NCBI GenBank assembly: GCA_013141065.1
Contig: JABFRR010000008.1
Coordinates: forward strand, 124,001 to 188,000
Length of the DNA stretch: 64,000 nt
Direction: 5' to 3'
Source: Bacteriovoracaceae bacterium
GTDB taxonomy: Bacteria; Bdellovibrionota; Bacteriovoracia; Bacteriovoracales; Bacteriovoracaceae
Part shown: in pieces, positions 5,414 to 27,045 of the stretch
How positions within the stretch are numbered: position 1 is the stretch's first letter
How the letters are laid out: every line of letters starts with the position of its first letter
Made by a program: the position numbers and the translations under genes
Notes under the pieces: model-generated
What the model saw: the letters and a program-made list of their open reading frames with translations, nothing else
Told to the model about the DNA's origin: nothing
Database searches by the model: none

Positions 5414-6875
5414 ATGACTCAAAATGATGCTTCTTCTTGGATTCAAGAAGAGTTTTCTTCTCATGCCTTTAGCGATGATCGTCTTCACAAGAGACTTTTA
5501 AAAATTACCAAATCTCTAGCAGAGGCACCGACTTTATCTATTAATCAAGCATGTGCTGAGTGGGCAGCCGTGAAAGGTGCTTATCGATTTTTTGACAACA
5601 ACTCCGTCTCAAGCGATCTTATCCTAGATCCTCATTATAGAATTACATATGAAAGGTCGTTACCTGACGATCGTATTCTTATCGTTCAAGATACTTCTAA
5701 AATTAATTATGATTCACATCGGGCAACCGAAGGACTTAGTTCTTATAGCACTTCTAAAGGATTTGAAACTCACGGCCTTATTACTCATACAGCTCTTGCA
5801 GTTAACACGGATGGAGTTCCATTAGGAGTAATCGATCAAAAAACTTGGACGAGAAGTATTGATGATGATGTCAAAGAATTGAGTGAATATAAAAATTATA
5901 AAAGACCAATTGAAGAAAAAGAAAGTTATAGATGGATTGAGGCTTTAAAGAAATCTAAAGAACGAATGCCAGATAAAGATATTGTAATAGTTGGAGATCG
6001 TGAAAATGATATCTATGAGTTTTTCAAGAAGCTTTAATTGAAGATGTGAATTTTGTTGTTCGTTCATCGTCTCCTAGAACGATAGAGGATACTTCCGGAC
6101 TCCATCAAAATATGGATCACAAACTTCGGAAATTGCCTGAAATGGGGCGAGTGTGTTTACACATTCCTGCAAAGCAGGGAGTGGCGGCACGTTCAGCAGT
6201 GCTTGAACTTCGTTTTACTGAGGTTATGTTGTTAAGTAGACCAAGGGAATTAAGATTGCGAGATCAGATACGCGAGTAGATATTCCATTAAATGTAGTTG
6301 AGCTTGTTGAAAGAAATCCACCGAAAGGAATAAAAGCTCTTCACTGGAGAATTTTAACTAATTTAAAAGTTAACAATGATAAAGAAGCATTAGAAATCAT
6401 TCATTATTACAAGCAAAGATGGCAAATTGAGACATTTTTTAAAATTTTAAAATCCACGTGCAAGGTTGAGGATTGTCGACTTGGACATGCTGAAAAATTA
6501 ATTAAATTTATTGCATTGAAGTCGATAATTGCCTGGAGAATTTATTGGGCAACGATGCTGAGGCGAGAATCATCAGAATTACCAGCTGATTGTATTATTA
6601 CAACGGCCGAATGGAAGTCAGCCTGGGTGACGTTAAATTACAAAAAAATAAAAGAGAAAAAAATCCCTAATCAGATTCCTGAAAAAGTCCCTACTCTTGA
6701 TACAGTTATAAAATGGATTGCTCAACTTGGAGGCTGGCTTGGTCGTAAGGGTGATGGTGAACCGGGTGTTATGAGTATTGCGAAAGGCTGGCAAAGAATA
6801 GAATCAGGTGCAATGATGTGGGAGACAATGAATGATCAATGCAAAAAACCCACAACCGATGAAAGTTGTGGGTAA
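5414..6875 (+). pseudogene. IS4-family (Tn5-like) DDE transposase, frameshifted
   Basis: Three consecutive frames together encode one transposase of about 485 aa: 5414-6034 in frame 2, about 6034-6243 in frame 1, and about 6243-6875 in frame 3. The N-terminal part resembles the Tn5-type DNA-binding domain (ASSWIQEEFSSHAFSDDRL, AEWAAVKGAYRFFDNN). Candidate catalytic residues are D in IVQDTSK, D in VIVGDRENDI and E in YYKQRWQIETFFKILKS. The first frameshift reads as loss of one G in AAGAAGC; the second lies near 6243. As read, it cannot give an active enzyme. The last codons overlap the right-end hairpin. Confidence 0.85.
6843..6873 (-). terminator. Inward-facing hairpin terminator in the right end of the IS4-like element
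   Basis: On the minus strand ACCCACAAC pairs with GTTGTGGGT and is followed by TTTTTT. It mirrors the left-end hairpin. Because smc is transcribed toward it, it now probably serves as the smc terminator. Confidence 0.7.
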
Positions 6876-11386: not shown

Positions 11387-11742
11387 ATTTGGCCTGTCCT
11401 TCGGCGAGCGCAACACCATTGAGCTCAATTTTATATTTAACCGGACATACACGACTAATCATGTAACTCACACCACAATACTTGGTCATTGATTTTATCA
11501 CAGAAGATTTAACTATTTCTGGGTCGAGTTTATCTCCTAAGAAATTAAAATGAACCCTGACTTCTGCAAAATATTTTGGTGTTGTATTAGTTAAATCAGC
11601 TTCAGTACTAATTTCAAATGAAAGAAGCTCTTGCTTGTGCTTTTTTAAATAATACACAATATCCATACCCGTGCATCCAGATAAGCCCTGCAAAACATAT
11701 TCTTTGGGACTCGCCCCTTGATTTAATCCACCACTCGCGAAG
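11379..11742 (-). pseudogene. OsmC/Ohr-family protein, C-terminal part (gene split by an IS)
   Basis: This fragment has the OsmC-family segments GGLNQGASPKEYVLQGLSGCTGMD and YCGVSYMISRVCPVKYKI, including the two conserved cysteines. The N-terminal 27 codons lie at 13182-13261, on the other side of an IS1111-type element. Deleting the element plus one CT core rejoins the parts in frame (80 + 364 = 444 bp, 147 aa). OsmC-type proteins reduce organic peroxides or handle other reactive thiols. The ATG-led frame from 11759 uses IS sequence for its first residues and is not the native start. Confidence 0.85.
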
Positions 11743-11832
11743 AAGTAATGGATGACCACCCTTTACTCTGGGACTGGTTACCCTAAAGTAATATTTAGGA
11801 AATAAATACTTACTCAAAAAGGGGGTCATCCA

Positions 11833-12935
11833 ATGAAAAAGATACTACATGTGGGGCTAGATGTCGACGACAAGAGTTTTCATATCGGAGCATTTTGCTC
11901 AGAAACTGAGAGGTTTTGAACTATCGTCAAAGCCTACCGTTGGAGATTTATTAAAAAACTAGAAAAATTTAAGGCGTTAAATTTTGAAATTAAAATCTGT
12001 TATGAGGCAACCTATATTGGTTATTCATTGTGCCGATTACTTAGAAAAGCAAATATTGAAACAGTAATTATTGCACCTTCACTAATTCCAGAACTGCCAG
12101 TAAAAGAGTTAAGACGGACCGATTGGACGCTAATAAAATGGCAAAATATTATGCCAATGGTTTACTGACAACAATTTACGTTCCAGTGGAAGAAGATGAG
12201 CACGATAGAGATTTAATCCGCAGTAGAAGTTTTTTGGTTGATCAGAGAAAAGATTTAAAGAAACATATTTTGTCTACTTGTCGAAGAAATAATCTTCATT
12301 ATAAGCAAGAACAAAATGCCAAAGATCATTGGACAGCAAAACATTTAAGTTGGCTCATAGGTGAAATAAATAAATTATCCGGTGCTCTTCGAAGTACGTT
12401 TGATTTTCTAATGTTCCAATTAAAAAAATTGGATGAGTGTATAAGTGATTTTGAAGAAAAAATAAAAGAACTAGCTGAAACAGAAAAATATAAAAAGAAA
12501 AAAGATTCTCTTAACTGCTTTAGAGGCGTGAGTACGTTGACAGCAATGACTTTAATCACAGAGATTGGAGATGTTAAAAGATTCAAACACCCTCGCCAAC
12601 TAACTTCATATGCAGGACTTGATATTGCTGAATATAGCTCTGGTGGCAAAGAGAAAAAGCTCAGTATTACAAAAATGGGAAATAGAAGAATTAGGACTGC
12701 CGCCATTGAGTCCTGCCAACGAGTAGACAAGGCCAATAAGTTAAGTAAAAGGCTTGCAGAACATCGTAAGCACCAAGATGCAAAAATTATTGATGTAGCC
12801 GATCGTTGCATAAAACGATTGAGAAAAAAATCAAATAATTTACTAGAAGCTGGTAAACATAAAAATAAAGTAAAAGTTGCGTGTGCGCGTGAGTTCCTCA
12901 GTTTTATCTGGGAAGCTTTACACGTAGCCGCTTAA
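11833..12935 (+). pseudogene. IS110-family transposase (DEDD/serine type), frameshifted, copy 1
   Basis: The N-terminal RuvC-like domain begins at 11833 (MKKILHVGLDVDDKSFHIGAF) and suffers three single-base losses near 11910, 11918 and 11956 compared with copy 2. A further -1 change near 12105, shared by both copies, leads into the frame TDRLDANKMAKYYANG (open from TTG 12123 to 12935). That frame contains the C-terminal transposase domain (CFRGVSTLTAMTLITEIGD, TSYAGLDIAEYSSGGK, TKMGNRRIRTAAIES). IS110 transposases cut and paste DNA with a guide RNA from their own non-coding end. Confidence 0.85.
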
Positions 12936-13181
12936 AATATAGTAATAACCGCTCAGGCGGTAAGGATAAATACGCTTCTAAAAAATTATAAGATCAAGTT
13001 GTGATGAAGTCCTTGTTAGCAGACATAGATTAATATATCTGAGCGAAGATTAAGGTTAACATCACATTCGAACACACTTAATGCGTTATCCAGCACGCGG
13101 ATATGAGTCTGAAAGTTCAAGATGCTCATAAATTTTTTAGGAGGGTATTTTTTTCCTTGCAAATGTGGTCATCCATATGAG
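12936..13181 (+). ncRNA. Candidate bridge RNA region in the right end of the IS1111-type element
   Basis: The 246-bp non-coding right end is where IS1111-group bridge RNAs are expected. GAAGTC at 13006-13011 equals the left part of the target GAAGTCTG on the transposase-sense strand. CAGAC at 13020-13024 is complementary to its right part GTCTG. The two are 8 nt apart, as in the two guides of one target-binding loop. ATATGAG at 13101-13107 repeats the element's own right terminus. The RNA ends are not determined. Confidence 0.5.
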
Positions 13182-19952: not shown

Positions 19953-21250
19953 AAATTATAGTTAAAGGAGACGGTATGTAAGTGAATAGCTTACTGAAGT
20001 CAATCCGGAATAAATGTAGAGAATGGAAAATTTTAAAAGTGTACCTCAGGATTTAAATAGAGAAGCTTCAGGAATGGGCCTGAGCTTAATTTATGAGAGG
20101 GCGAACCGAGGTTCCCCTAACCTGGAGGTACACATGGCAAAGTATAACATTGGTGTTGATTATCACAAAAAGTTTTCTCACTTAGTGGTGAAAGATGAGA
20201 TGGGAAAAGTTTTACGATCTGGTCAGGTAATGAATAAAAAAGCAGACGTGAATAAGTTTTTAAAGCCTTTCACCAATGACTCTGCTGCGGTTTTGGAATC
20301 TTGTAGAAATTGGCAAGTAATGCACGAGTGGCTTGAAGAAATGATTGACCATGTTGTGCTAGCAAATCCGTATAAAGTAAAAGCAATTGCTGAAGCAAAG
20401 ATTAAGACTGATAAAATCGATGCAACTGTTTTAGCAGATCTATTACGAGTGAACATGATCCCTGAATGTTATGTGGCACCGAGAGAAGTACGAGACTTGA
20501 GAACGCTGTTAAGACAACGAATATTTTTTGTTCAAACGAGAACGAAAGTAAAAAATAGAATTGTGACAATAGTTGATCGTTATCCAGAAGAAGTACAGAA
20601 GTGGAAAGCAGTAACGGATCAATTTGGAAAGAAAGGGCGAAAACAAATAGAAGAACTTTGTTTTAGCCCAATGGATAGGGCACTAATAGAAAGAGAAATG
20701 AGTTTTATAGATATGATTAATCTTTACATTAAAGAAATTGAAGACGTTATTGGAGAAAACTTTAAAGAAAGCAAGAATGCTCAGCTATTAAAAACGATTC
20801 CAGGTATTGGACAATTTTTTTCAATGTTAATTGATTCTGAAATTGGTGAGATTGAAAGATTTAAAACAGTAAAAAAATTATCAAGCTATGCAGCCTAATA
20901 CCTGCAACTTATTCCTCAGGGGAAAGACAACTCAGGGACGAATTACAAAAAGTGGAAACCATCTACTTCGATGGGCACTGGTAGAAGCTGTGATACCGGC
21001 AATTGCTAGTGATGAGGAACTAAGAGCGGAATATGATTTTTAAGAAAGAGAATGAATTACAACAAAGCAAAAGTGGCAATAGCAAGAAAGATATTAGCGA
21101 TTTGCTTCAGAGTTTTAAAAAGACGAGAGAGCTTATAAAAAGAAGAATAAAATTGAACTTGAATACAAAAGATTATCGAGGGCAGCATAGCTACCCTCAA
21201 TCTTCAACTTGCCCCCGATTTTTATCTAGTGGTTTATCTATAGGATAATC
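19953..21250 (+). mobile_element. IS110-group element, degraded; exact ends not resolved
   Basis: A transposase lies between the MBL-rhodanese gene and the yeeE-like pair. About 150 bp of non-coding DNA precedes it, the position where IS110-group (not IS1111-group) elements carry their bridge RNA. I could not find inverted repeats, as is usual for this group, so the ends are approximate. The sequence AAAGGAG-acggt-ATG-TAA at 19964-19981 looks like an orphan ribosome binding site and start codon near the left end. Confidence 0.55.
20134..21145 (+). pseudogene. IS110-family transposase with several frameshifts
   Basis: The start is ATG 20134 after a good CTGGAGG site. The intact part to 20898 contains the RuvC-like domain (NIGVDYHKKFSHLVV, IKTDKIDATVLADLLRV) and the start of the C-terminal domain (LLKTIPGIGQFFSMLIDSEIGE, SSYAA). 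Beyond 20898, pieces of the expected tail appear in other frames: LIPATYSSGERQL, then GRITKSGNHLLRWALVEAVIPA, then KAKVAIARKILAICFRVLK. At least three single-base shifts separate them, so the gene is dead as read. Confidence 0.8.
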
Positions 21251-23280: not shown

Positions 23281-23999
23281 TTATTTTTTCCCTGATTCAA
23301 TCTTCACTTTAATAAGTTTGATGGCTTTTTCAAAATCTCCATCTTCTTGATCTAACATACTAATTCTCATTTGATTAAATTTTTCATATTCCGTTTCAGC
23401 TTTAGAAATCGCAAGTTCATGACTAATTTTCCCAGAATGATTTAAAATATCGCGGTCATTTAAGGATAAAAAACCTTCAAGCTTTGTAATCCAATCATTC
23501 ATGCTCATCGGGATTCTTCGTCTCGCTTGCCCTTCAGCAAAAACTAAGTACTGTTCAACAAGATTACTTAAAGATAAAAGTTCTTCTTCTTGAAGATAAT
23601 TTTTGGCAACGCTCACATCACCCTTACGAACTTTTTCTCCTCGCCATGTAGTGAGTCCCATGTTGCTCTTTTTTGAATCAGCTCTATCGTAAATAATTTC
23701 AGCGGCAGTTTTTTCAGTGATGGCCCAATGAAGCTTGTTCTGTACGGTCTTGAAAAAATTAATACTAATGTCTGAAGTCGGATCGTAATCCATACTTGTT
23801 GCATAAATTTCAGTGATCTTTTGGTAGAACCTTTTTTCAGAAGTTCTAATATCCTGAATACGTTTTAAAAGCTCATCAAAATAGTCAAACGGATGATCTG
23901 GATTTTTTAAGCGCTCATCATCAAGCACAAACCCTTTTACAATATACTCTCGAATTCTCTCTGTAGCCCACTGCCTAAAGCGTGTACCACGTACAGACT
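23281..23999 (-). pseudogene. RhuM family protein, C-terminal part (gene split by an IS)
   Basis: This part encodes the C-terminal 238 residues of a RhuM-family protein, beginning SVRGTRFRQWATERIREYIVKGF and including KLHWAITEKTAAEIIYDRAD and MNDWITKLEGFL. RhuM-type proteins are widespread accessory DNA-associated proteins of uncertain role, often near restriction or toxin loci. The first residues of the longer frame to 24057 come from the IS. Removing the IS and one CT core joins it in frame to 25441-25762 (1,041 bp, 346 aa). Confidence 0.85.
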
Positions 24000-25438
24000 C
24001 ATATGGATGACCACATTTGCAAGGAAAAAAATACCCTCCTAAAAAATTTATGAGCATCTTGAACTTTCAGACTCATATCCGCGTGCTGGATAACGCATTA
24101 AGTGTGTTCGAATGTGATGTTAACCTTAATCTTCGCTCAGATATATTAATCTATGTCTGCTAACAAGGACTTCATCACAACTTGATCTTATAATTTTTTA
24201 GAAGCGTATTTATCCTTACCGCCTGAGCGGTTATTACTATATTTTAAGCGGCTACGTGTAAAGCTTCCCAGATAAAACTGAGGAACTCACGCGCACACGC
24301 AACTTTTACTTTATTTTTATGTTTACCAGCTTCTAGTAAATTATTTGATTTTTTTCTCAATCGTTTTATGCAACGATCGGCTACATCAATAATTTTTGCA
24401 TCTTGGTGCTTACGATGTTCTGCAAGCCTTTTACTTAACTTATTGGCCTTGTCTACTCGTTGGCAGGACTCAATGGAGGCAGTCCTAATTCTTCTATTTC
24501 CCATTTTTGTAATACTGAGCTTTTTCTCTTTGCCACCAGAGCTATATTCAGCAATATCAAGTCCTGCATATGAAGTTAGTTGGCGAGGGTGTTTGAATCT
24601 TTTAACATCTCCAATCTCTGTGATTAAAGTCATTGCTGTCAACGTACTCACGCCTCTAAAGCAGTTAAGAGAATCTTTTTTCTTTTTATATTTTTCTGTT
24701 TCAGCTAGTTCTTTTATTTTTTCTTCAAAATCATTTATACACTCATCCAATTTTTTTAATTGGAACATTAGAAAATCAAACGTACTTCGAAGAGCACCGG
24801 ATAATTTATTTATTTCACCTATGAGCCAACTTAAATGTTTTGCTGTCCAATGATCTTTGGCATTTTGTTCTTGCTTATAATGAAGATTATTTCTTCGACA
24901 AGTAGACAAAATATGTTTCTTTAAATCTTTTCTCTGATCAACCAAAAACTTCTACTGCGGATTAAATCTCTATCGTGCTCATCTTCTTCCACTGGAACGT
25001 AAATTGTTGTCAGTAAACCATTGGCATAATATTTTGCCATTTTATTAGCGTCCAATCGGTCCGTCTTAACTCTTTTACGGCCAGTTCTGGAATTAGTGAA
25101 GGTGCAATAATTACTGTTTCAATATTTGCTTTTCTAAGTAATCGGCACAATGAATAACCAATATAGGTTGCCTCATAACAGATTTTAATTTCAAAATTTA
25201 ACGCCTTAAATTTTTCTAGTTTTTTTAATAAATCTCCAACGGTAGGCTTTGACGATAGTTCAAAAACCTCTCCAGTTTCTGAGCAAAATGCTCCGATATG
25301 AAAACTCTTGTCGTCGACATCTAGCCCCACATGTAGTATCTTTTTCATTGGATGACCCCCTTTTTGAGTAAGTATTTATTTCCTAAATATTACTTTAGGG
25401 TAACCAGTCCCAGAGTAAAGGGTGGTCATCCATTACTT
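23998..25438 (-). mobile_element. IS1111-type element of the IS110 family, copy 2 (in rhuM)
   Basis: This 1,441-bp element is nearly identical to 11743-13181 but inverted, differing by a few substitutions and single-base indels. It has the same subterminal repeats (GGATGACCAC / GTGGTCATCC). The candidate bridge-RNA segment is on the minus strand at about 23998-24243. The flanks are rhuM sequence on both sides. Confidence 0.92.
24244..25348 (-). pseudogene. IS110-family transposase, frameshifted, copy 2
   Basis: The first frame (25348-25010) encodes the RuvC-like N-terminus without the three deletions seen in copy 1. The catalytic TDRLDANKMAKYY frame follows after a -1 change near GTAAAAGAG, a change shared with copy 1. 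A copy-specific loss of one T near 24945-24950 then shifts into the C-terminal domain (24244-24945). The shared shift could be programmed or an inherited lesion. Confidence 0.82.
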
Positions 25439-25762: not shown

Positions 25763-27045
25763 CTAGGCAAAACCTAGCGTGCCAGCAATTAAGCGCGTGG
25801 ATATTAAAATGTTTGTATGTACTACAACATTTTGATCACAAGGAGTGCTGCTTATGAAGTATTTTATCGGCCTTGACGCCCATTCATCAACATCAACTTT
25901 TGCCGTTTTGAACGAAATTGGTGAATGTGTTCTCAGAAAAACTGTCGACACCTCTGAAAAGAACCTTTGGCATGTTCTAGAATCAATAAATGGCGAGCGA
26001 ATTCTCACACTCGAAGAGTCAACTATTTCGCAATGGTTGTATTTAATACTCAGAGAAAAAGTAGATCGCTTATTAGTTTGCAATCCAACTTTTGTTGCAA
26101 GAAAACCTGGTGGAAAAACAGATTTCAGAGATGCAATTCATCTCGCAAATGAACTTCGATGTGGTCATTTAAGAGAAGTTTTTCATGACGATTCCCATTG
26201 GGCACAACTTAGAACTTCAGTGAGTGGCTATCTAGATATCGTTCAAGAAATAGTTAGATTTAAAAATCGATTAAAATCTGTCTTTAGAGCTAATGGGCTC
26301 AAGACAGATGAAAATAACTTCTACAAAAATAAAGAGCGATGTTCAGAATTTAAAAACGATTCAGCTCGATTTGTTTCAGAAAATTTATTTCATCAAATTG
26401 AATTTTTAGAAAACGAAAAAATAAAGTATCTAGACTGGTTTAAAAATAATCAAAAAAAATATCGCCCAATTAGGAATCTGATGACGATACCAGGAATAAG
26501 TATTGTCAGGTCCAATATTATTACGGCGATTGTATGCCAACCAGAGCGCTTTAAAAATAAACATCAGTTCTGGGGCTACTGCATGTTAGTTCGTCACATT
26601 CAAGAATCAGGTGGAAAAATTTATGGAAACAAAAGAGTTCATGGCCGCAGAGAGCTGCGAGATATTTTTATTGGTGCGGCGAATCAGCAATGAGAACTGA
26701 AACAACATTGCGAGATTATCACGATGCACTTCGAGCGAAAGGAACTTCTGCTAAAGATGCAAAGGTAGCACTTGCAAGAAAAATTGCTTCACTGACATTA
26801 AATTTATTAAAAAACAACGATACATACAACGACGATTACGAGGAGTATTTAAAGGAAAGAAAACGACTACGATTACTTGTCGGACAGAAAAAACGCTAAA
26901 GAATCTCGTTCACTTGATTTCACATGGAAGTGAATTAGGAGACAGTTCCCTTTCTTATTCATTATGACAGGAAAGCGATTGTTAAATTAAATATAGGATT
27001 TGTTTCGGGTGAATTAGGGATGAAGGATGAGGCCCAATATTCTCA
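25745..27045 (+). mobile_element. Further IS110/IS1111-type element upstream of rhuM
   Basis: A 12-bp perfect inverted repeat, TTGGGCCTCATC at 25752-25763 and GATGAGGCCCAA at 27026-27037, flanks an IS110-type transposase and may be the subterminal repeats. ATGAGGCCCAA recurs as a direct repeat at 27129-27139, so the right end could extend further. The right non-coding end is longer than the left, as in the IS1111 group. The ends given are approximate. Confidence 0.55.
25854..26899 (+). pseudogene. IS110-family transposase, split near its C-terminus
   Basis: ATG 25854 follows AAGGAG. The first frame (to 26693) has the RuvC-like domain (YFIGLDAHSSTSTFAVL, GGKTDFRDAIHLANELRCG) and the start of the C-terminal domain (RNLMTIPGISIVRSNIITAI, SGGKIYGNKRVHGRRELRDIF). 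The remaining tail (LRDYHDALRAKGTSAKDAKVALARKIASLTLNLL) is in the next frame from 26690, overlapping by 4 bases. In relatives this is one chain, so a frameshift near 26685 is likely, although two coupled ORFs cannot be excluded. It is only distantly related to the other IS110-type copies here. Confidence 0.75.

What the first reader, a model, noticed from the sequence alone, without database searches (positions are those of the whole stretch)
12936..13181. Candidate bridge RNA whose target loop matches the observed target
In the non-coding right end, GAAGTC (13006-13011) equals the left half of the target and CAGAC (13020-13024) is complementary to its right half, only 8 nt apart. ATATGAG (13101-13107) equals the element's own right terminus, as expected for a donor guide. 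IS110/IS1111 bridge RNAs carry just such paired target and donor guides. The same segment is present in copy 2 (about 23998-24243, minus strand).
Basis: partly seen in the sequence, partly recalled or inferred. Interest (0 to 1): 0.85.

Follow-up and report, generated by a model that had tools for sequence, protein, structure and literature searches.

The report
IS1111-type transposon with guide RNA
A jumping gene in this bacterium carries, next to its transposase gene, a structured RNA whose short guide segments match both the place where it inserts and its own end, and comparison with relatives shows that guides and targets change together, so it very probably chooses its insertion site by RNA.

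Summary
The finding is real, but one of its three guides is misassigned. The element at 11743-13181 (two more near-identical copies in the genome) is an IS110-family insertion sequence of IS1111-type organisation: 12-bp subterminal inverted repeats, a 246-nt non-coding right end, an AG core. The right end holds a conserved RNA (model match 12986-13138) with two-sided changes in 14 of 18 predicted pairs.

CAGAC is supported as the right target guide (GCAGAC, 13019-13024): it changes with the right flank in relatives. GAAGTC (13006-13011) is not the left guide: it lies between two helices and does not follow the targets of relatives (permutation p = 0.90). The left guide is GCGAAG (13043-13048), 3' of the right guide (p <= 5e-5). 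This order is the one published for IS1111 seekRNAs, the reverse of IS621.

ATATGAG (13101-13107) is supported as a donor guide: RNA and right terminus agree 7/7 in 12 of 12 family members, in three sequence states, and in 6 of 9 plasmid-borne relatives. A CTT opposite it probably reads the left end.

Kind: new member of a known kind. Its interest is comparative evidence that an IS1111-order RNA also carries a donor-reading half. No transcript or activity was tested.

The parts
11743..13181 (+). insertion sequence, copy 1 (1,439 bp; the AG core stands at 11741-11742 and again at 13180-13181)
   Evidence: repeat pair, ends, restored OsmC-family frame when the flanks are joined
23998..25438 (-). 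insertion sequence, copy 2, inside a RhuM-family gene
   Evidence: PF13310 on the downstream part, below cut-off on the upstream part
11748..11759 (+). left subterminal inverted repeat ATGGATGACCAC
13165..13176 (+). right subterminal inverted repeat GTGGTCATCCAT
11833..12935 (+). transposase gene, frame broken in this copy; intact 369-aa relative in L004
12986..13138 (+). conserved RNA (model R1 match)
   Evidence: 138.3 bits; the window copy is one of the 12 sequences the model was built from
13000..13066 (+). target domain: P1 13000-13006 with 13060-13066, P2 13011-13014 with 13052-13055, short inner hairpin 13027-13029 with 13038-13040
   Evidence: RNAalifold and pair counts on 12 sequences
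13019..13024 (+). right target guide GCAGAC, complementary to the top strand GTCTGC
   Evidence: permutation tests, per-insertion matches
13043..13048 (+). left target guide GCGAAG, identical to the left half of copy 1's target (pairs with the bottom strand)
   Evidence: permutation tests; not significant in 7 plasmid relatives
13006..13011 (+).
   Evidence: no covariation, p = 0.90
13077..13079 (+). CTT, proposed right donor guide (reverse complement of AAG at the left end)
   Evidence: exact trinucleotide in 11 of 17 elements
13082..13099 (+). donor hairpin TGCGTTATCCAGCACGCG
   Evidence: helix paired in all 12 sequences, nearly invariant
13101..13107 (+). ATATGAG, left donor guide, equal to the right terminus 13175-13181
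   Evidence: 7/7 in 12 of 12 family members and 6 of 9 plasmid relatives

Best explanation
The element is an RNA-guided insertion sequence. Its DEDD transposase binds an RNA made from the right end. [quoted passage not shown] Exchange at AG inserts the element in a fixed orientation without a target duplication. Shown here: anatomy, conserved structure, guide-target and guide-end covariation, strand order. Inferred: transcription, binding to the transposase, pairing in the complex, the circular intermediate, exchange at AG. My odds are about 0.92 for the target half and about 0.65 to 0.75 for the donor half as a working guide.
For: Conserved structure with two-sided changes in 14 of 18 pairs. 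Left guide p <= 5e-5 and right guide p = 0.0008 (w = 7), each as the maximum over all alignment columns; opposite-strand controls p = 0.21 to 0.96. Right guide in 13 plasmid relatives p <= 5e-5, same-strand control p = 0.41 (AG plus 5 nt). Donor match 7/7 in 12 of 12 and 6 of 9. Transposase passes NF033542. Guide order, RNA position, repeat length and end extensions as published for IS1111.
Against: No expression or activity data. Single sequences do not fold better than shuffles (11 sequences, z -1.69 to +1.26). One of the five pair measures is weaker (further pair types 30 against 25.0, 14 of 500 shuffles as high). Right guide only 5 of 7 in 4 and 4 of 7 in 1 of 15 insertions; with AG plus 7 nt the plasmid test weakens to p = 0.008. 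The left guide is not significant in 7 plasmid relatives (p 0.27 to 0.37) and weak in L004/L005. L038, found by the RNA model alone, has no right-guide match. The permutations do not control for relatedness; the donor signal in the family has only three states. The transposase frame is broken in all three near-identical copies.
Confidence: 0.75

Rival explanations
1. Only the 5' domain works as a guide (a seekRNA in the sense of Siddiquee et al.). The 3' domain is not a donor guide: ATATGAG resembles the right end because the transposase protein binds the same motif in both places, or for another cis-acting reason.
For: For ISEc11 an 82-nt seekRNA alone supported transposition, more efficiently than the long RNA (PMC11187229). 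The target domain here is about 67 nt (13000-13066) and would match such a short form.
Against: The terminus and the RNA change together, on the strand expected for base pairing, and the trinucleotide across the hairpin is a reverse complement of the left end, which a shared protein-binding motif would not predict (11 of 17 exact; this test mixes clades).
Confidence: 0.22
2. The transposase recognises the target by protein alone; the matches in the non-coding end are coincidences, or copies of flanking sequence picked up earlier.
For: Each single match is short.
Against: Permutation tests in two sets. Three copies share one RNA while their outer flanks differ. Transposases of 45-73% identity keep the RNA scaffold while guide and target both change.
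Confidence: 0.03

Closest known systems
IS1111-group elements with seekRNA (ISEc11, ISPa11, ISKpn4, ISPst6; Siddiquee et al. 2024, PMC11187229)
   Same: non-coding region downstream of tnp; subterminal inverted repeats of 11-13 bp; 7/3-bp extensions; top-strand-complementary guide 5' of the bottom-strand-complementary one; natural redirection between relatives
   Different: transposase 369 aa against 330-350; P of the GL-P----S(T)G motif missing in all 9 aligned family proteins; a donor half is proposed here, whereas that paper leaves the role of the long RNA open
IS621 bridge RNA (IS110 group; Durrant et al. 2024, PMC11208160)
   Same: two-domain RNA, target loop then donor loop, each with guides to both strands and including or touching the core
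   Different: RNA in the right instead of the left end; order of the two guides within each loop reversed; core AG instead of CT; 12-bp instead of 2-3-bp inverted repeats
Plasmid-borne IS110-family elements of Proteobacteria, Actinomycetota and Bacillota, with ISEc45 (RNA match) and ISSso6 (transposase listing only)
   Same: transposase family; homologous RNA by model R1 on the expected strand in 13 of 17 loci searched at E <= 1, ISEc45 (L051) E = 4e-7
   Different: three aligned transposases 28-31% identical to L004; right end of the ISEc45 copy not found, so its target was not tested; the RNA of ISSso6 was not examined

Membership tests
IS110 family in the wide sense (IS110 plus IS1111) | DEDD transposase with PF01548 and PF02371 domains | tested here: met
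   L004 transposase: PF01548 41.6 bits, PF02371 66.9 bits, NF033542 197.1 against cut-off 140; the window copies are frameshifted
[quoted passage not shown]
IS110 family in the wide sense (IS110 plus IS1111) | RNA co-purifies with the transposase and is needed for movement | not testable with these tools
   needs expression and an assay
IS1111 group | subterminal inverted repeats of 11-13 bp with 7-bp left and 3-bp right extensions | tested here: met
   12 bp, exact; 7 and 3 bp if AG is counted on the left
IS1111 group | long non-coding region downstream of the transposase gene | tested here: met
   246 nt right, 90 nt left
IS1111 group | top-strand-complementary guide 5' of the bottom-strand-complementary guide | tested here: met
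   GCAGAC 13019 before GCGAAG 13043; definition
IS1111 group | GL-P----S(T)G motif in the C-terminal domain | tested here: not met
   9 of 9 aligned family proteins have I, V or L in place of P, and 3 of 9 have GF or GM for GL; relatives L047 and L048 have GLVP
IS1111 group | transposase of 330-350 aa (a reported range) | tested here: not met
   369 aa in L004
IS1111 group | transposase falls in the IS1111 clade | not tested
   no tree with ISfinder entries was built; hence filed as IS1111-type organisation, not as a member of the clade
IS110 group (IS621-like) | RNA in the left end, short inverted repeats, bottom-strand guide 5' | tested here: not met

The most novel reading that the evidence does not exclude
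IS1111-type long RNAs are true two-loop bridge RNAs in mirror order. Their 3' half, whose role the seekRNA paper leaves open, reads the element's own joined ends through a three-base right donor guide and a seven-base left donor guide around a conserved hairpin, and it co-evolves with the right terminus across several bacterial phyla.
Probability: 0.6. Interest if true: 0.65.

Novelty: new member of a known kind. Interest (0 to 1): 0.5.

Why it matters
It adds a set of naturally redirected elements, some aimed at ribosome-binding sites, to the RNA-guided IS1111 type, with guide positions precise enough to test. The donor-guide covariation makes an open point directly testable: whether IS1111-type elements use their RNA to recognise their own ends, as IS621 does, or only to find the target.

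Tried and rejected
Rejected: GAAGTC as left guide. IS621-type guide order. Left end starting at TAATGG with AAG in the target: the OsmC-family frame would gain one residue that the relatives lack.

Led nowhere: the Rfam scan of the window at gathering thresholds gave only a tRNA. The genome-contig scan gave 1 distant locus, L018, without an RNA match. Two viral-contig scans gave no relative. The order and class searches covered the same number of genomes (129) with the same 6 matching ones as the family search. Single-sequence folding was uninformative. A promoter across the circle junction is weak: mean 8.5 of 12 matches against 7.3 shuffled; a TTGACA-like box stands 22-25 nt before the right end in the best hit of 12 of 17 elements, but not in the window element. 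The left guide in plasmid relatives was not significant (7 tested).

Dropped rows: L011 (transposase, no RNA match, ends not found); L018; L037 (truncated, right end one base off); L039 (weak partial RNA match); L041 (same copy as L013); L050; L051 (right end not found); L052 (followed at once by another transposase gene, right end not found); L062 (near-duplicate of L048). L045 (IS4321) was looked at only for the item under noticed. L013 has a left end only; L008 and L024 a right end only. L006, L012, L014-L017, L025-L027, L029-L036, L040 and L042-L044 are re-fetches of elements already held. The right ends of L048, L049, L056 and L061 had been found through the donor match itself, so they are in the 13 but not in the 9. 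The plasmid relatives L046-L049 had been looked at by eye before one search was run.

Literature: a search for ISSso6, ISEc45 or ISAzs32 listed 12 papers, of which only PMC11208160 was opened. IS110 with ribosome binding site, target site and IS900 gave none. IS110 with Shine-Dalgarno gave 4, two opened for passages, neither on target choice in what I saw. That IS900 is said to insert near ribosome-binding sites is recalled, from no call.

Full report
What is there. The window holds two inverted, near-identical copies of an insertion sequence, at 11743-13181 (+) and 25438-23998 (-). The genome has a third such copy (L003) and two at 72% nucleotide identity, L004 and L005. L004 encodes an intact 369-aa transposase that passes NCBIfam NF033542 (IS110 family RNA-guided transposase, 197.1 bits, cut-off 140) and carries PF01548 and PF02371. 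Among solved structures it matches ISCro4 and IS621 by sequence. The ends carry exact 12-bp subterminal inverted repeats. The right non-coding end runs from the stop codon at 12933-12935 to 13181.

Ends and targets. The three near-identical copies sit in GCGAAG|TCTGC, GTGAAG|TCTGT and CTTAAG|TCTGC. The placement takes AAGTAATGG as the left end and AG as a core shared by element and target. Joining the flanks of copy 1 on this basis gives a continuous OsmC-family frame. Of 11 homologous loci compared, 9 align through the junction without a gap; L070 does not reach it and L073 is gapped nearby. The left flank ends in AG in all 14 insertions of the family for which a left flank was held.

Relatives. 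A protein search at E <= 1e-50 matched 12 of 368 genomes of the phylum, the window's own included. The RNA model built later matched 15 of 368, one of them weakly. Eight relatives aligned to the L004 transposase are 45-73% identical to it, yet the right ends keep a block of near-invariant sequence (CTTAATGCGTTAACCAGCACGCGAAT) with variable segments around it.

Structure. RNAalifold on 12 aligned right ends predicts 18 pairs, 14 with two-sided changes. With this structure 88.3% of cells are paired, against 25.9-51.8% when partners are slid by 1-3 columns; the covariation score is 0.524 against a shuffled mean of 0.220, 0 of 500 shuffles as high; further pair types are 30 against 25.0, 14 of 500 as high. 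The structure was derived from this alignment, so cells paired leans towards it. Single sequences do not fold better than shuffles (11 sequences, z -1.69 to +1.26). In the window P1 is 13000-13006 with 13060-13066, P2 is 13011-13014 with 13052-13055, and the target loop lies inside P2.

Target guides. I scanned alignment columns for agreement between RNA words and the element's own flanks, with flanks swapped among elements as null and the maximum over columns as statistic. For left flanks on the same strand (6-base words) the best column is that of GCGAAG (13043-13048): 52.7 of 66 against 34.4 expected, p <= 5e-5, 11 elements. Restricted to the four bases left of the core it is 27.7 of 40 against 12.3, p <= 5e-5 (10 elements). 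For right flanks as reverse complement the best column lies in the right-guide region: 42.5 of 84 against 28.1, p = 0.0008 for 7-base words, 12 elements (p = 0.019, 0.003 and 0.0008 for 5, 6 and 8). The opposite-strand controls gave p = 0.21 to 0.96. Per insertion, the right guide matches 7 bases including the core G at 6 or 7 of 7 in 10 of 15, 5 of 7 in 4 and 4 of 7 in 1 (best position in a 45-nt stretch). It lies between P1 and P2.

Second set. I fetched plasmid-borne relatives that had played no part in finding the guides; 13 had a usable right end (Alpha- and Betaproteobacteria, Actinomycetota, Bacillota). The best match of the right flank anywhere in the non-coding region before the donor hairpin summed to 77 of 91 (AG plus 5 nt) against 66.3 with swapped flanks, p <= 5e-5, same-strand control p = 0.41; AG plus 4 and plus 6 nt also gave p <= 5e-5, AG plus 7 nt p = 0.008. 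In 11 of 13 the best match starts 70-80 nt before the hairpin. The left guide could be tested in 7, whose left flanks resemble each other; it was not significant (p 0.27-0.37). Model R1 gives a match at E <= 1 in 14 of 17 plasmid loci, 13 of them on the expected strand, the weaker ones at E 0.019 to 0.35; IS4321 (L045), L052 and L058 give none. Of three further elements found by the RNA model alone, L028 has a 7/7 right guide (GTTCTCC for GGAGAAC), L038 has none on the right and 5 of 6 on the left, and L037 could not be judged (read by eye).

Donor guides. After a conserved hairpin (13082-13099) the RNA repeats the element's right terminus: ATATGAG in the window copies. In the family, terminus and RNA agree 7/7 in 12 of 12, in three states (ATATGAG, ATACGAG, ATAAAAG; p = 0.0005). 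In 9 plasmid elements whose right end was set by inverted repeats only, 6 of 9 agree 7/7 (59 of 63 bases, p = 0.0002). On the other side of the hairpin a trinucleotide is the reverse complement of the first three bases of the left end: exact in 11 of 17 elements (CTT for AAG, GGT for ACC, TGT for ACA). This last test mixes clades, so its p value is generous. No permutation here controls for relatedness.

How it most likely works. A transcript from the right end folds into a target domain and a donor domain, each with the top-strand-complementary guide 5' and the bottom-strand-complementary guide 3'. The transposase uses it to bring the joined ends of the circular element and the target together and to exchange strands at AG. 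Anatomy, structure and covariation are shown. Transcription, binding and catalysis are inferred from IS621 (PMC11208160: section 12 read in full, passages elsewhere) and from the IS1111 work (PMC11187229: sections 6, 9, 10, 12, 13 and 14 read in full, passages elsewhere).

Compared with what is known. Guide order, position of the RNA, length of the inverted repeats and the 7/3-bp extensions are those reported for IS1111 elements. The order is the reverse of IS621. The proline of the IS1111 motif is missing and the protein is longer, so membership in the IS1111 clade proper is not claimed; no tree was built. Durrant et al. predicted donor-binding nucleotides for IS1111 elements by inspection. 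Siddiquee et al. found that a short seekRNA suffices for ISEc11 and leave the role of the long RNA open. The covariation here favours a working donor half.

A side result. L004, L005 and L007 sit in Shine-Dalgarno-like sequence just before the ATG of a gene, and L028, of which only the right flank is held, does so too, with right guides to match. The element's right end leaves GAG in front of the right half, so a Shine-Dalgarno-like sequence remains before the downstream gene. That this is useful to element or host is inference.

Noticed in passing
L038 (genome G019): A 303-bp derivative with both ends and the whole RNA but only the last codons of the transposase gene: a miniature element that would need a transposase in trans. 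Its right guide does not match its right flank.
   Followed up: partly
window 11743-13181, 23998-25438; L003; L004 and L005: The copies differ mainly by one-base indels, most in runs of one base (0 substitutions and 8 indel columns between L001 and L003; 4 and 4 between L001 and L002; 2 and 4 between L002 and L003; 2 and 2 between L004 and L005), so the transposase frameshifts may be assembly errors.
   Followed up: partly
window 20023-20898 and 25845-26693: Two further IS110-type transposase frames of other kinds (PF01548 and PF02371 in both), within 15 kb of the studied element.
   Followed up: no
L004, L005, L007, L028: Members of the family sit in Shine-Dalgarno-like sequence before a start codon, with right guides that match GGAGG or GGAG.
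   Followed up: partly
L045 (IS4321), 192 and 250 nt after the transposase gene: ATAGATTC occurs both in the non-coding region and across the right end with its flank, perhaps a donor-type match in a named IS1111-family element; a single case, not tested.
   Followed up: no
L037: A truncated relative next to AGAAGTATAAAACGGG, a stretch that recurs about 1 kb downstream, as if the target were a repeated sequence.
   Followed up: no
window 5414-6037: A frame with the Tnp_DNA_bind domain (PF14706), another transposase.
   Followed up: no
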